This document shows positions 9,212 through 14,252 of a stretch of DNA of 64,000 bases, piece by piece (within the stretch, counting starts at the first letter, position 1; each line of letters begins with the position of its first letter). Below the pieces are notes generated by a model that was not told the DNA's origin, did no database searches, and saw only the letters and a list, made by a program, of their open reading frames with translations. The position numbers and the translations under genes were made by a program. The stretch is from Corynebacterium testudinoris (GTDB lineage Bacteria; Actinomycetota; Actinomycetes; Mycobacteriales; Mycobacteriaceae): the NCBI RefSeq assembly GCF_001021045.1, contig NZ_CP011545.1, positions 310,001 through 374,000 on the forward strand, given 5' to 3'.

Positions 9212-9217
9212 TACTAT
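9212..9217 (+). promoter_or_regulatory. -10 element of mshA (leaderless)
   Basis: TACTAT lies 7 bases before ATG 9225. The in-frame ATG at 9216 overlaps this hexamer and so cannot be in the transcript, which fixes the mshA start at 9225. The assignment is by eye. Confidence 0.55.
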
Positions 9218-9224
9218 GAAAACC

Positions 9225-10490
9225 ATGCGAGTTGCCATGATCTCCATGCACACCTCCCCGCTGCAGCAGCCCGGAGTGGGCGACGCCGGGGGCATGAACG
9301 TCTACGTCCTCAACACGGCCCTCCAGCTTTCGCGCCAGGGCGTTGAGGTGGACATCTTCACCCGAGCGACCCGCCCGAGCCAGGGGGAAATCGTCGAGGT
9401 CGCGCCGGGCCTTCGCGTCATCAACGTCGTCGCGGGCCCTTATGACGGCCTAGCAAAAGAGGCCCTGCCCACCCAGCTGGCGGCGTTCGCGGGCGGCATC
9501 GTCCAATTCAAGAAGTGTCACCCCGTCGACTACGACCTCATCCATTCCCACTACTGGTTATCGGGCCAGGTCGGCTGGCTTCTTGCCGATCTGTGGGAGG
9601 TTCCGTTCGTGCACACCTCACACACCCTGGCCGCCGTGAAAAATGCCCACCGGAGCGAGGATGATTCCCCGGAGTCGGAGGCCCGCCGCATCTGTGAGCA
9701 GCAGCTGGTGGATAACGCTGACTTCCTGGTGGTGAATACCCACGAGGAGACCAATGACCTCGTCGGCCACTATGACGCCAACCGCGAGCGAGTCGTTGTT
9801 GTCCCGCCCGGGACTGACACGGATCTTTTCACCCCGGGAACCGAACGCAACACTGAGCTGTCCCGCCGCCAACTGGGCATCCCCCTCCACGCACAGGTCA
9901 TCGCCTTCGTTGGGCGTTTGCAGCAGTTCAAAGGCCCCCAGGTGCTCATCCGGGCGGCCGCGGAGTTGATGAACCGCAACCCCGAACGCAACCTGCGCGT
10001 CATCATCTGTGGTGGTGCCTCGGGGGCGTCGGCAAGCACCGAGATCTACGCTGACCTGGCGCGCGACCTCGGGGTCGCTCGCCGCATCCGCTTCCTCGAA
10101 CCGCGCCCGCCCTCAGAGCTGGTGACCATCTACCAAGCGGCGGACATCGTCGCGGTCCCCAGCTACAACGAGTCCTTCGGCCTCGTCGCCATGGAGGCAC
10201 AGGCCTGCGGCACCCCGGTGGTCGCCGCCCGCGTCGGCGGCCTGCCCATCGCCGTCGCGGAGGGCGAGACCGGAGTGCTTGTCGACGGCCACGGGACAGA
10301 AGAGTGGGCCGATGCCCTCGCGGCGCTCCTCGACGATGATGACACCCGGATGCGGATGGCCGAGGAAGCCGTCGCCCACGCCGCGAATTTTTCGTGGGCA
10401 TCCACGGCGTCTCAGTTGGCGGCCGTCTATGCAGAAGCCGTCACCGTGGAGATCTCCGACTGCCAGCCACGACACGCCTCAGCTCAGTAG
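9225..10490 (+). CDS. mshA: D-inositol-3-phosphate glycosyltransferase, mycothiol synthesis
   Basis: A 421-residue GT4 glycosyltransferase. It joins UDP-GlcNAc to 1L-inositol-1-phosphate, the first step of mycothiol formation in the cytosol. Seen: the N-terminal [17 protein letters not shown] and [12 protein letters not shown] loop that binds the acceptor, [30 protein letters not shown], and the C-terminal nucleotide-sugar motif [18 protein letters not shown]. The start at 9225 is favoured by the -10 hexamer just before it. In M. tuberculosis (Rv0486) the gene is followed by a YbjN-type gene and gpm1; here an accessory island fills that gap. Confidence 0.96.
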
Positions 10491-10515: not shown

Positions 10516-10584
10516 TCATCCCCGTAGCGTGAAAGAGTCCACGACCTGCATCGTTTCCTTGTCATAGACCGGAATGTGTACAGA
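10516..10584 (-). pseudogene. Possible gene remnant downstream of immunity copy A
   Basis: A 22-codon open stretch without a start codon ends in TGA and reads SVHIPVYDKETMQVVDSFT and three more residues. Its ordinary amino acid composition suggests the tail of a lost gene. It sits between the mshA stop and the first immunity copy, on the strand of the nuclease island. The evidence is weak and no family is recognised. Confidence 0.2.
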
Positions 10585-10615
10585 TCATCCTTGCGTGCAT
10601 GTTCACATCTCCTTG

Positions 10616-11233
10616 TCATTTGATTACGTACTCAAGAAACTCCGGCGGCCTCAGCTCATCTTCACGCCAAAACTCTAGGTGGAGCTGACATGGCAACGAC
10701 TGCCACGAACGGCCCGACGTCGGAAATTCCGTCACCCCGACCGACTCTGGATGGGTACCGACAATCCCATCCCGAAGCTGTGTTTTGTCAAAGACAACCG
10801 AGCCTCGGACCCGCCACACACCAGTTGGCAGCCGCCAGTCCCTGATTTTCGGCTCGTACGTGATGTCGAAGTACCCCATCTCCACTGTCACCTCAGCCCC
10901 GGTGCCCTCGAGATACTCCACCGACACCTCAGCCCAGTTCAGATGCTCCTGTGGCTGCAGTGGTGGTGGCGGTGCATCCAGGATTGACAACGTCAAACCT
11001 GCCGCTTCATCAGTGGTCGGAGTGGCAACCCTGATGATGCTGACGCCCGCCTCCAGGAGGGGGATGGAGCGAGGGGGGAGAATTGGCGCACCGTTAGCGT
11101 CTGTTTCATACAGCGAATCAGGCCCCCACTCTGGTCCGTCATACTCCAGTGTGTCCCAGTTCGTGGGATAGTTCATGATGTCAAACCTCATTGCATCTAC
11201 CAACTGAATGGGCCCACTTGTTACTGATGCCAT
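10616..11233 (-). CDS. Putative nuclease immunity protein, copy A
   Basis: A 205-residue acidic protein with no signal peptide or membrane segment, so it should stay in the cytosol. I do not recognise a named domain. It is about 89% identical to copy B upstream. Copy B follows the secreted nuclease with a 1-base stop/start overlap, and copy A follows a 42-codon ORF ending in the same nuclease tail with the same TGATG junction. By analogy with NucA and its inhibitor Nin (ComJ) in Bacillus, and with polymorphic toxin operons, the best guess is an inhibitor of a NucA/NucB-type nuclease. This is inferred from context only. Confidence 0.75.
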   Translation of the reverse strand: MASVTSGPIQLVDAMRFDIMNYPTNWDTLEYDGPEWGPDSLYETDANGAPILPPRSIPLLEAGVSIIRVATPTTDEAAGLTLSILDAPPPPLQPQEHLNWAEVSVEYLEGTGAEVTVEMGYFDITYEPKIRDWRLPTGVWRVRGSVVFDKTQLRDGIVGTHPESVGVTEFPTSGRSWQSLPCQLHLEFWREDELRPPEFLEYVIK

Positions 11234-11361
11234 CAGGGAATCACCTCCACGACATAGTTATCACCGGACTGGATCTGATTGTTGCGATAAAAACCACTCA
11301 TGGTTGCCGGTCCTGAACCCTGGAAAGTTGACACGGGGTTCAGACCCTCCCTTGCACGCAT
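11233..11361 (-). CDS. 42-codon chimeric ORF ending in the nuclease tail
   Basis: The ORF begins at ATG 11361 after AAGGAG. Its first 20 residues (MRAREGLNPVSTFQGSGPAT) are unrelated to the nuclease as read here. The last 22 (from MSGFYRNNQ to VVEVIP) match the last 22 residues of the nuclease except at 2 positions. The stop overlaps the start of immunity copy A (TGATG). It looks like the junction product of the 760-bp duplication: the start of a former downstream gene joined to the nuclease tail. It may only serve to couple translation of copy A, or it may be non-functional. Confidence 0.4.
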   Translation of the reverse strand: MRAREGLNPVSTFQGSGPATMSGFYRNNQIQSGDNYVVEVIP

Positions 11362-11375
11362 GTTCCATCTCCTTG

Positions 11376-11993
11376 TCATTTGACCACGTACTCAAGAAAC
11401 TCCGGCGGGCGCAACTCATCTTCACGCCAAAACTCCAGATGGAGCTGACATGGCAACGACTGCCACGAACGGCCCGACGTCGGAAAATCCGTCACCCAGA
11501 CCGACTCCGGATGGGTACCGGCAATCCCATCTCGAAGCTGTGTCTCGTCAAAGACAACCGACCCTCGGACCCGCCACACACCAGTTGGCAGCCGCCAGTT
11601 CCTGACTTTCGGCTCGTACGTGATGTCGAAGTACCTCATGTCCACTGTCACCTCAGCACCGGTGCCCTCGAGATACTCCACCGACACCTCAGCCCAGTTC
11701 AGATGCTCCTGTGGCTGCAGTGTTGGTGGCGGTGCATCCAGGATCGACAACGTCAGACCTGCCGCTTCATCAGTGGTCGGGAGGACAACCCTGACGATGC
11801 TGACGCCCGCCTCCAGAAGAGGGAGAGACCTAGGTGCAATAATTGGGAAACCCTCCCCATCCTTTTCGTACAGCGAATCAGGCCCCCACTCCGGGCCGTC
11901 ATACTCCAACGTGTCCCAGTTCGTTGGATAGTTCATGATGTCAAAACCCATTCCATCGACCAACTGAATGGGCCCACTTGTTACTGATGCCAT
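11376..11993 (-). CDS. Putative nuclease immunity protein, copy B
   Basis: A 205-residue cytosolic acidic protein, nearly the same as copy A. The ATG at 11993 shares its A with the TGA stop of the nuclease frame (TGATG), so translation is probably coupled to the nuclease. That arrangement is typical of a toxin and its immunity protein. Differences from copy A cluster at residues 44-71, for example EKDGEGFPIIAP here against ETDANGAPILPP. The C-terminal half (LPTGVWRVRGSV, LPCQLHLEFWRED) is almost invariant. The family is not recognised; the function is inferred from position. Confidence 0.78.
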   Translation of the reverse strand: MASVTSGPIQLVDGMGFDIMNYPTNWDTLEYDGPEWGPDSLYEKDGEGFPIIAPRSLPLLEAGVSIVRVVLPTTDEAAGLTLSILDAPPPTLQPQEHLNWAEVSVEYLEGTGAEVTVDMRYFDITYEPKVRNWRLPTGVWRVRGSVVFDETQLRDGIAGTHPESVWVTDFPTSGRSWQSLPCQLHLEFWREDELRPPEFLEYVVK

Positions 11994-13203
11994 CAGGGAA
12001 TCACCTCCACGACATAGTTATCACCGGACTGGACCTGATTGTTGCGATAAAAAGCACTCATCTTTAGCCCTTGTTGGTCATTCTCCTTTTGCGGAACCCA
12101 CATGGTGTGGGCGCCTGCGCCGCCTTCTATAGAGGAAGCGAACGGATACTCATCGCACGAGGGCCGATCCATGTCGGCGGGCTTCGGCTGCTCTGCCTCC
12201 AACTGCCTACGCGCCGCACCTCGACACACCGCATCCCGGTTCGCTGTGATCTCACCACCAGTGACCCGCGTGAGCATGCTGGGTGCTCCGGACGCCAGCG
12301 CGGAACTGATGTTGTGTGCAATGAACGGATACTCGGCACGTGAATATGTCAAGGTCGGAGCAATCTTCGGATTCACACAGTTTAGTCTTGCGTTAGTCCA
12401 TGCCCTACTGCACCGGAGGTTGGCAACGCCTCCAATTAGCTGCGGCTCCCCTCCCGGGCTGGACCGGACCCTCAAAGACACACTGGTACCTGCAGCCCCA
12501 CCGCAGCCCGGGGCACCACCAGGAAATTTTGCCCCAAAGGCGCGTGCTCGTTAACCGCGTTTTCGAGGGAGACGCTGGTTGTACTGTCCTGGCCTAACTG
12601 TGAATAACTGTTTGCGTAAGGCGTATAGGTGTAGGACTCCGTTGCCGGTGGTGGAGTGCCTGTCTCCTTTAGGGGAAGGGCGTAACTTTGTGCCAATTTC
12701 CGGCTGTTTGTACTGTTCATCCCGTATTCATAGCGAATCAGTGCGGTCTGGGTGCCGGCGACACGTTCACACGCCGGCAGCCGGGTTGTCTGACAGTAAT
12801 CAGTAATGAACCTGAAATAGTCACACGTTCTGAACCGGCTGTAAATGCATGCGTACGGATCCTGAAGGATGTCGCCAGAGTGAGAGTGAACACCCCAAGA
12901 CTCTCCAGGGGTAGCTGGGCGGAGCCGCACGACGTACACAGGTTCGGCCAACTCGCCTCCTACGACTTCAGGGTCAGTGGCCTCATGAGGGTCTTCATCG
13001 GTGGTCGGGGCGATCAGTTCCTCGCTCTGGGCAATCCCGCGGTCGTCGTCGAGAAACTCCGGCGGGTCTTCCTGCGTTGCCTGCTTGGCTGGGCCTGAGC
13101 TGGAGAAATCGGCACTTCGGGCGTGAGTGGGGGTCCCGACAGGAACCACCACTGCTATAGCTGTGGCCACTGCCAGCGTGGCCACCCGGCTTCGGAAGCT
13201 CAT
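11993..13203 (-). pseudogene. Secreted NucA/NucB-type deoxyribonuclease, frameshifted
   Basis: Two overlapping frames together make one protein. The first runs from ATG 13203 (AGGGG 8 bases before it) to TGA 12472 and gives a signal peptide (MSFRSRVATLAVATAIAVVV, cut near THA-RS) and a Cys-rich N-terminal region. The second, in the -1 frame, is open from before 12481 to 11993 and gives NPKIAPTLTYSRAEYPFIAH, the catalytic CDEYPFASSIEGG and KENDQQG...FYRNNQ, the hallmarks of NucA/NucB nucleases. A one-base shift is needed somewhere before codon VPVCL-stop. It may be a real inactivating mutation, a sequencing error in one of several G/C runs, or a programmed -1 shift. The intact catalytic motif and coupled immunity gene argue for a recent change. 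Confidence 0.75.
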
Positions 13204-13505
13204 AATGCACCCCTGGTTAGTTTGCTTAGTTGTGACTAACAATCGACGGCAATTCGAACGTATCATGTCTGCGGGATTGTGGAGTGATGTGGATCATAAA
13301 TAGCCATCAATCCCCGTCACCACATTCCCGCAGCGTGACCCATCTGGCCTGGATCTCTTCTGGCAGCCAACGCAACGGCCCCAAAACTCTTACGCCACTC
13401 AACGTCGCGGCTGCCGGCCACGCCGGAGCGTAACTCCCCGAGAAAACTCGTGCGCTGTATCTCTTCCACCAGCGCTACGGCCCCAAAAGTGGCATATTAG
13501 GGGAC
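13204..13505. other. Intergenic region between nuclease and gpmA
   Basis: No gene is seen in these 302 bases. They contain a long inverted repeat (CTGCGGGATTGTGG at 13269-13282 with CCACATTCCCGCAG at 13320-13333, one mismatch). They also contain two imperfect copies of a segment with ATCTCTTC and CGCNACGGCCCCAAAA (about 13351-13385 and 13457-13490). The second copy leads into CATATTAG just before the gpmA start, where a -10 element would give a leaderless or nearly leaderless transcript. Confidence 0.5.
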
Positions 13506-14252
13506 ATGAGTAACGGAAAGCTGATTCTCCTACGCCACGGCCAGAGCCAGTGGAACGAGTCCAACCAATTCACCGGCTGGGTCGATGTCGACCTGACCAC
13601 CAAGGGAGAGGATGAAGCCAAGCGCGGCGGCGAGCTCCTCAAGGAAGCGGGCCTGCTGCCGGACGTGCTGTACACCTCGCTGTTGCGTCGTGCGATCCGC
13701 ACGGCGAACATCGCCCTCGATCACGCTGATCGCCACTGGATTCCCGTCGTCCGCGACTGGCGTCTCAACGAGCGCCATTATGGCGCCCTGCAGGGCCTGA
13801 ACAAGGCCGAGACCAAGGACAAGTACGGCGAGGAGCAGTTCATGTCCTGGCGCCGTTCCTACGACACTCCGCCGCCGGAGCTGGCCGATGACTCTGAGTA
13901 CTCGCAGTCCCAGGACGTGCGCTACGCAGACCTGCCGGCCGTGCCGCGCACCGAGTGCCTCAAGGACGTCGTCGATCGTTTCATCCCGTACTACACCGAG
14001 GAGATCCTCCCGCGGGTGAAGGCGGGCGAGACCGTCCTCATCGCCGCCCACGGCAACTCGCTGCGCGCGCTGGTCAAGCACCTGGACAACATCTCCGACG
14101 AGGACATCGCGGCGCTGAATATCCCCACCGGTATTCCGCTGGTCTACGAACTCTCCGCCGATGGCACGGTCCTCAACCCCGGTGGTACCTACCTTGATCC
14201 CGAGGCCGCTGCGGCCGGTGCTGCAGCAGTTGCGGCACAGGGTGGTAAGTAG
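13506..14252 (+). CDS. gpmA: 2,3-bisphosphoglycerate-dependent phosphoglycerate mutase
   Basis: A 248-residue glycolytic enzyme that interconverts 3- and 2-phosphoglycerate. The phosphohistidine motif [10 protein letters not shown] places His11, the second catalytic His182 is in [10 protein letters not shown], and the dPGM signature [14 protein letters not shown] is complete. Length is normal. The ATG is only a few bases after a CATATTAG -10 candidate, so the transcript may be leaderless. senX3 starts 10 bases after the stop, so read-through is likely, as in related genomes where gpm precedes senX3-regX3. Confidence 0.97.

What the first reader, a model, noticed from the sequence alone, without database searches (positions are those of the whole stretch)
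10592..13203. Secreted nuclease with duplicated immunity genes inserted between mshA and gpmA
A signal-peptide NucA/NucB-type nuclease (CDEYPF...EN..QG motif) is followed, with a 1-base stop/start overlap, by a cytosolic 205-residue protein, and a second copy of that protein follows with a copy of the nuclease tail. This is the layout of a toxin with an immunity protein and an extra, diverged immunity copy, as in polymorphic toxin loci. I do not recognise the immunity family. The island looks lower in GC than its flanks and takes the place of the gene found between mshA and gpm1 in M. tuberculosis.
Basis: partly seen in the sequence, partly recalled or inferred. Interest (0 to 1): 0.78.

Follow-up and report, generated by a model that had tools for sequence, protein, structure and literature searches.

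The report
Secreted DNase with duplicate inhibitor genes
A small acquired DNA island in a tortoise-mouth bacterium carries a secreted DNA-cutting enzyme gene, broken by a frame change in this sequence, and two copies of a gene from an unnamed protein family that probably protects cells against such enzymes.

Summary
The window is from Corynebacterium testudinoris DSM 44614. The layout is real: a NucA/NucB (PF14040) nuclease, a 205-aa gene overlapping its stop by one base, a copied nuclease tail, and a second 205-aa copy (89% identical, dN/dS 0.26). The island is acquired: the sister genome has about 75 nt between mshA and gpmA.

The 205-aa family has no significant match in Pfam, NCBIfam, PADLOC or PDB and is rare (4 of 242 Corynebacterium genomes). 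G200, another Corynebacterium, repeats the layout with an intact nuclease: nuclease, family gene, secreted protein, second family copy. In Williamsia a distant member overlaps a NucA/NucB gene. A wider superfamily occurs within 2 kb of 14 of 32 NucA/NucB loci (9 of them in the training set); 6 of 25 hits outside that set lie so close, 0.023 expected.

Best reading: cognate inhibitor (immunity) of a Sec-exported DNase, analogous to ComJ/Nin but not matching it by sequence. Against: intact secreted nucleases without it, degenerate orphan copies, and superfamily members in 22 of 80 genomes lacking NucA/NucB. Inhibition is untested; structure prediction was off.

The parts
12472..13203 (-). N-terminal piece of the nuclease gene: signal peptide and N-terminal region, ending in a stop in its own frame
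   Evidence: ORF 12472-13266, start near 13203 and signal peptide judged by eye; its residues 143-238 match the N-terminal part of the intact G200 nuclease, 32% over 96 aa, E 1.1e-8; no Pfam match
12482..12552 (-). interval in which the reading frame of the nuclease gene changes
   Evidence: G200 nuclease residues 124-216 match 12840-12553 and residues 240-399 match 12481-12002 in another frame
11993..12481 (-). catalytic piece of the nuclease, NucA/NucB domain with CDEYPF...EN..QG
   Evidence: PF14040 E 1.9e-22; 54% identical over 160 aa to the intact G200 nuclease; D, E, N aligned with NucB 5omt in a weak match, E 0.44
11376..11993 (-). first 205-aa gene, putative inhibitor/immunity protein
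   Evidence: one-base overlap with the nuclease stop
11233..11361 (-). 42-aa ORF holding a copied nuclease tail (22 codons at 11236-11301), ending in TGATG before the second 205-aa gene
   Evidence: sequence
10616..11233 (-). second 205-aa gene, 89% identical to the first, dN/dS 0.26
10519..10584 (-). possible remnant of the last ~20 codons of a secreted partner protein that follows such nucleases elsewhere
   Evidence: profile positions 240-257 of 258; E 0.011 when only the 125-nt region is searched, E 2.1 to 2.3 in the whole window, where four other stretches scored better: suggestive only
13407..13432 (+). displaced native 3' end of mshA on the far side of the island
   Evidence: alignment to the empty site in G029

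Best explanation
The island carries a module made of a Sec-exported NucA/NucB-type DNase and its cognate cytosolic inhibitor (the 205-aa family), translated as a coupled pair. The nuclease leaves the cell through its signal peptide and cuts DNA outside or in neighbouring cells; the 205-aa protein stays inside, binds the NucA/NucB domain and blocks it, so that the producer and relatives carrying the gene are protected. The second 205-aa gene with its leftover nuclease tail is a tail-plus-immunity cassette, duplicated or acquired from another allele and kept as extra immunity. In the deposited C. testudinoris sequence the nuclease is frame-broken while the 205-aa copies diverge under constraint, so this strain may now be immune but not a producer. 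Shown: gene order, overlap, duplication, frame break, recurrence of the pair in another Corynebacterium and of a distant member in Williamsia, a dN/dS of 0.26 between the copies. Inferred: export, binding, inhibition, competition.
For: Intact nuclease plus two 205-family genes in G200. The 205-family profile A2 matched 3 of 401 family genomes; the one match outside Corynebacterium, in G118, E 1.6e-6, overlaps a NucA/NucB ORF by 4 nt; hhalign probability 96, E 3e-9. A2 against six other proteins encoded beside NucA/NucB (A4): probability 95, E 1.7e-8; against three of those six alone (A5): 69, E 4.5e-5; the control A6 (neighbours of Rhs-like NucA/NucB proteins): probability 0.2. Superfamily A7: 6 of 25 hits outside the training set lie within 2 kb of NucA/NucB, 0.023 expected; 14 of 32 NucA/NucB loci have a member within 2 kb, of which 9 are training loci. 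Superfamily in 15 of 21 genomes with PF14040 (6 training genomes dropped from 21 of 27) against 22 of 80 without it, Fisher p 3.3e-4, relatedness not corrected; 24 of the 80 in which one search had scored only part of the candidates were searched again and gave 0 of 24. dN/dS 0.26. Precedent: Nin inhibits NucA and NucB of B. subtilis (PMC5758888, passages); Tox-ComI is listed with Imm-ComJ and Imm-SUKH (PMC3482391, passages).
Against: 18 of 32 NucA/NucB loci have no superfamily member within 2 kb; leaving out the 9 training loci, 5 of 23 have one. Six of the 18 are full-length nucleases, secreted by eye (G343 twice, G410, G258, G214, G424; some near-identical), followed instead by a secreted partner, and G258 has no detectable member at all, so the nuclease can be tolerated without it. 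22 of 80 PF14040-negative genomes carry superfamily members; no consistent toxin was seen upstream of the loci inspected. Narrow-family copies in G044 and G526 are broken or truncated with no nuclease remnant found. No structure and no binding data.
Confidence: 0.62

Rival explanations
1. Housekeeping pair: the nuclease serves feeding on extracellular DNA or biofilm turnover, and the 205-aa protein only protects the producer's own chromosome from nuclease that is not exported, as barstar does for barnase. No competition between cells is involved.
For: Stand-alone secreted nuclease with no delivery module known to Pfam; in genomes of genus g32 the nuclease is followed by a secreted partner and no inhibitor gene; Nin/NucA precedent.
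Against: Second inhibitor copies in both Corynebacterium loci, a copied nuclease tail, patchy island-like distribution (4 of 242 genomes) and retention of inhibitor genes beside a broken nuclease fit conflict better.
Confidence: 0.25
2. The 205-aa protein is not an inhibitor but a chaperone, pilot or regulator needed to make or export the nuclease.
For: Tight overlap with the nuclease stop; relatives encode similar nucleases with other neighbours.
Against: It follows the nuclease gene, is kept when the nuclease is broken, and is duplicated; a genome with such a nuclease and no superfamily member exists (G258).
Confidence: 0.08
3. The frame break is an assembly or sequencing error, or a programmed frameshift, and the nuclease is fully made (a question about the window's copy, compatible with each explanation above).
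For: The motif residues are intact; the break lies in a stretch with short runs of G and A; the genome was built from MiSeq reads with Newbler (whole text).
Against: Illumina data rarely err in runs of four (recalled); the G200 relative has one uninterrupted frame.
Confidence: 0.3

Closest known systems
NucA/ComJ (Nin) of Bacillus subtilis: DNase and nuclease inhibitor, PF14040 and PF11033
   Same: Same nuclease family; inhibitor candidate encoded next to it; a small protein without signal peptide (by eye).
   Different: The 205-aa family and its superfamily do not match the ComJ model; duplicated inhibitor copies; no competence context was looked for beyond the immediate neighbours.
Polymorphic toxin systems with Tox-ComI domains (Zhang et al. 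2012, PMC3482391)
   Same: C-terminal NucA/NucB domain on different N-terminal parts (plain secreted, LGFP, Rhs-like), neighbouring putative immunity gene, extra immunity copies, orphan tail cassette.
   Different: The table passage read lists Imm-ComJ and Imm-SUKH for Tox-ComI (passages only); the window protein is a short Sec-type secreted protein, not a large delivery protein.
Rhs-like NucA/NucB proteins of other Corynebacterium (G522 tested; G605 and G586 by eye)
   Same: Same genus, same nuclease family, putative immunity gene next to it.
   Different: Their neighbour family (A6, four sequences of 145-155 aa) shows no similarity to the 205-aa family.

Membership tests
DNase NucA/NucB (PF14040) | domain above the curated cut-off | tested here: met
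   80.1 bits against 23.8
DNase NucA/NucB (PF14040) | metal-site D, E and N | tested here: met
   aligned with NucB 5omt in a weak match, E 0.44; roles from PMC5758888 passages; the NucB histidine lies outside that alignment and was not tested
DNase NucA/NucB (PF14040) | one intact gene with secretion signal in this genome | tested here: not met
   two pieces in different frames
ComJ/Nin (PF11033) | match to the ComJ model | tested here: not met
   0 of 10 family members, 0 of 10 proteins encoded beside NucA/NucB, no hit in G000, G200, G118 or G228 and only E 0.3 elsewhere in G275
ComJ/Nin (PF11033) | same fold as PDB 4MQD | not testable with these tools
   structure prediction switched off; sequence profiles A2, A4, A7 do not find it
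ComJ/Nin (PF11033) | inhibits NucA/NucB | not testable with these tools
   needs an assay
Polymorphic toxin/immunity system | putative immunity gene beside the toxin, recurring in unrelated loci | tested here: met
   window, G200, G118, G275 and others; 14 of 32 NucA/NucB loci within 2 kb, 5 of 23 without the training loci
Polymorphic toxin/immunity system | same toxin domain on different N-terminal modules | tested here: met
   plain secreted and LGFP, Rhs-like with a sub-threshold RHS match, E 0.0045
Polymorphic toxin/immunity system | known immunity family | tested here: not met
   no match in Pfam or PADLOC; NCBIfam only E 0.15 in 1 of 10 members, an unrelated enzyme family
Polymorphic toxin/immunity system | toxicity to other cells and rescue by immunity gene | not testable with these tools
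   bench test

The most novel reading that the evidence does not exclude
The 205-aa family is a strongly diverged branch of a large, unnamed immunity superfamily of the Mycobacteriales. Its members neutralise NucA/NucB nucleases carried on plain secreted, LGFP cell-wall or other modules, and probably other toxins too, so that mycolic-acid bacteria wage a nuclease-based conflict whose immunity family has not been named.
Probability: 0.4. Interest if true: 0.68.

Novelty: new variant of a known kind. Interest (0 to 1): 0.5.

Why it matters
If right, it names a new inhibitor family for a known DNase family and makes a specific test possible: does each superfamily member block the NucA/NucB domain next to it? 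It also suggests that mycolic-acid bacteria, where few interbacterial toxins are known (recalled), use exported NucA/NucB nucleases against each other, with orphan immunity genes left as footprints. NucB is of interest for biofilm dispersal (PMC5758888, passages), so a protein inhibitor would be a useful tool.

Tried and rejected
ComJ membership: rejected by the Pfam model. Two comparisons meant as a ComJ test are not valid, because the locus used, L087, was below the family cut-off and by eye looks like another kind of protein; a piece of the better hit L086 gave nothing, and that piece found no ComJ structure either. Plasmid and phage origin: no match for P0006 in either collection. Pattern-based scans of genome contigs and viral contigs gave no confirmed relative; the genome contigs miss says little, because the genome search does find relatives. 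Replacement of a mycobacterial gene: rejected. Nuclease remnants beside the orphan copies of G044 and G526: none found by a profile built from relatives. A weak profile match of A7 to PDB 6i86, E 0.35, was not pursued. Upstream ORFs of superfamily members far from NucA/NucB were listed by script; the ORF choice was crude and no consistent toxin emerged, so this is not a real test. Paper searches were seen as listings only, most of them capped (20 of 34, 20 of 3,197, 12 of 167,121, 10 of 10, 2 of 2, 10 of 15 papers shown), apart from passages of two papers read; no listed title or abstract start deals with this family, and most subscription papers are not in that library, so absence from print is not shown. 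One search scored at most 7 candidates per genome and at most 12, so their counts are lower bounds.

Full report
Setting. The window lies in a complete genome of 2,721,226 bases, the length reported for Corynebacterium testudinoris DSM 44614 (PMC4520890, found, whole text read).

What is there. On the minus strand, between mshA (9216-10490 +) and gpmA (13506-14252 +), lie four main pieces: an N-terminal nuclease piece with a signal peptide judged by eye (start near 13203, stop at 12472), a NucA/NucB catalytic piece (12481 to 11993), a 205-aa gene (11993 to 11376) and a second 205-aa gene (11233 to 10616). PF14040 matches the catalytic piece at 1.9e-22; nothing in Pfam or NCBIfam matches the window's two 205-aa proteins. 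The nuclease stop and the first 205-aa start share one base (TGATG); the second 205-aa gene has the same junction with a 42-aa ORF that holds a copied nuclease tail, 20 of 22 residues alike. Upstream of that tail the two copies show no evident likeness (printed, by eye), so the orphan tail may stem from another allele. The two 205-aa genes are 89% identical; dS 0.237, dN 0.062, ratio 0.26 by a Nei-Gojobori script.

The frame break. It is not one open frame. The intact relative in G200 matches the window over residues 124-216 in one frame and 240-399 in another, with the change between 12552 and 12482. Whether this is a true pseudogene, an error (MiSeq reads, Newbler assembly) or programmed frameshifting cannot be told here.

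An acquired island. G029, with an identical GpmA, has a gap of 76 nt between mshA and gpmA. Of the 30 loci fetched as best matches from 61 genomes, 18 have 52-166 nt, 4 have 650-825 nt, and 8 (including the window) have no mshA within 1500 nt (gaps run from the end of the protein alignment). mshA is 90-100% identical to G029 in 60-nt steps until its last ~70 nt and then 61-67%, and the native mshA 3' end stands at 13407-13432 on the far side. So the island entered at the mshA 3' end with a new 3' end. GC is 0.569 against 0.647 for the window.

Relatives of the 205-aa protein. The word-based protein search found one relative with a single query and 9 with alignment A1, from unnamed assemblies and C. 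glutamicum; one of these, P0007, is a 92-aa piece identical to the start of the first copy. In whole genomes: 4 of 242 in the genus. G200 carries an intact 400-aa secreted nuclease, a 212-aa family member 3 nt after it, a 238-aa secreted protein, and a second family member. G044 has a frame-broken copy and G526 a truncated one, both in other places by their neighbours and without nuclease remnants found; an unbroken relative with the same N-terminus as the G044 copy exists (P0004). No match in PDB sequences or PADLOC, none below E 0.2 in PHROGs, and one NCBIfam hit at E 0.15 in 1 of 10 members, taken as chance.

Outside the genus. Profile A2 matched 3 of 401 family genomes, one of them outside Corynebacterium: G118, E 1.6e-6 (at most 7 candidates per genome were scored), a Williamsia by the record of its identical protein. 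That 184-aa gene overlaps by 4 nt a 99-aa ORF that has only the NucA/NucB domain, again a tail-plus-partner cassette. Listing what follows other NucA/NucB loci showed G275 (201 aa) and G118 contig 3 (148 aa) with the same 4-nt overlap, and similar proteins near NucA/NucB in G228, G232, G173 and G147; in G228, G173 and G147 the nuclease has LGFP repeats (G232 not tested). hhalign: A2 against the G118 protein, probability 96, E 3e-9; against alignment A4, 95, E 1.7e-8; against three of its members alone, 69; against the control A6, 0.2.

How tight is the link. With superfamily profile A7, 21 of 27 PF14040-positive genomes outside the genus have a match, 15 of 21 after dropping 6 training genomes, against 22 of 80 PF14040-negative ones; Fisher p 3.3e-4, not corrected for relatedness. 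One search scored at most 43 candidates per genome; the 24 genomes without a match in which this cut candidates were searched again in full: 0 of 24. Of 25 hits outside the training set 6 lie within 2 kb of a NucA/NucB domain, 0.023 expected. Of 32 NucA/NucB loci 14 have a member within 2 kb and 18 do not; 9 of the 14 are training loci, so without them it is 5 of 23. Neighbours in G105, G270, G308 and G313 are on the opposite strand rather than downstream. The superfamily is thus linked to NucA/NucB but not confined to it. The window genome has no other member.

A secreted partner. In five genus g32 genomes (G343, G410, G258, G214, G424; six loci, some near-identical) the nuclease is followed by a secreted 237-279 aa protein related to the 238-aa protein of G200, which has no Pfam match. 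The window may keep its last ~20 codons at 10519-10584 (E 0.011 in that region alone, 2.1 to 2.3 in the whole window). These six loci lack a family gene within 2 kb (in G424 one lies 4.3 kb away), and G258 lacks any superfamily member, which speaks against a strict need for it.

Mechanism. The best reading is a secreted DNase with a cytosolic cognate inhibitor and an extra inhibitor copy. Known parallels are B. subtilis NucA with Nin/ComJ (PMC5758888, passages) and Tox-ComI with Imm-ComJ or Imm-SUKH (PMC3482391, passages). By sequence it is not ComJ. 8 of 242 genomes of the genus carry PF14040; besides the window and G200, the loci looked at have Rhs-like or fragmentary NucA/NucB with a different neighbour family (G523 was not looked at), so one genus seems to use two unrelated partners for one nuclease family.

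Noticed in passing
window 10415-10490 and 13407-13432: The last ~70 nt of mshA differ from the sister species (61-67% against 90-100% before), and the native mshA 3' end sits on the far side of the island: insertion at a gene 3' end with a replacement end; no integrase ORF was seen in the island (by eye).
   Followed up: partly
L035:6282-6998, L008, L009, L010, L011, L012, L033: A secreted protein family of 237-279 aa, without Pfam match in the one tested (G200), follows secreted NucA/NucB nucleases.
   Followed up: partly
L075, L077, L078, L079, L080, L081: Rhs-like or fragmentary NucA/NucB proteins in Corynebacterium are followed by 143-155 aa proteins; the four in A6 have no Pfam family above cut-off. 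Probably another unnamed immunity family.
   Followed up: partly
L014, L019, L020, L028: NucA/NucB domains fused behind LGFP repeats; in G147, G228 and G173 with superfamily genes within 2 kb, in G352 without.
   Followed up: partly
window 11300-11345 (-): Before the copied nuclease tail an imperfect inverted repeat (GGTCTGAACCC / GGGTTCAGGACC), seen by eye, stands where the rest of the nuclease domain would be.
   Followed up: no
L034:5386-5996 and L074:6840-7193: Degenerate copies of the 205-aa family in two unnamed Corynebacterium genomes, at different places: in G044 between ORFs that look like proteasome-system genes, in G526 beside ORFs that look like methylmalonyl-CoA mutase genes (names by eye; G526 has the size of C. 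glutamicum, recalled).
   Followed up: partly
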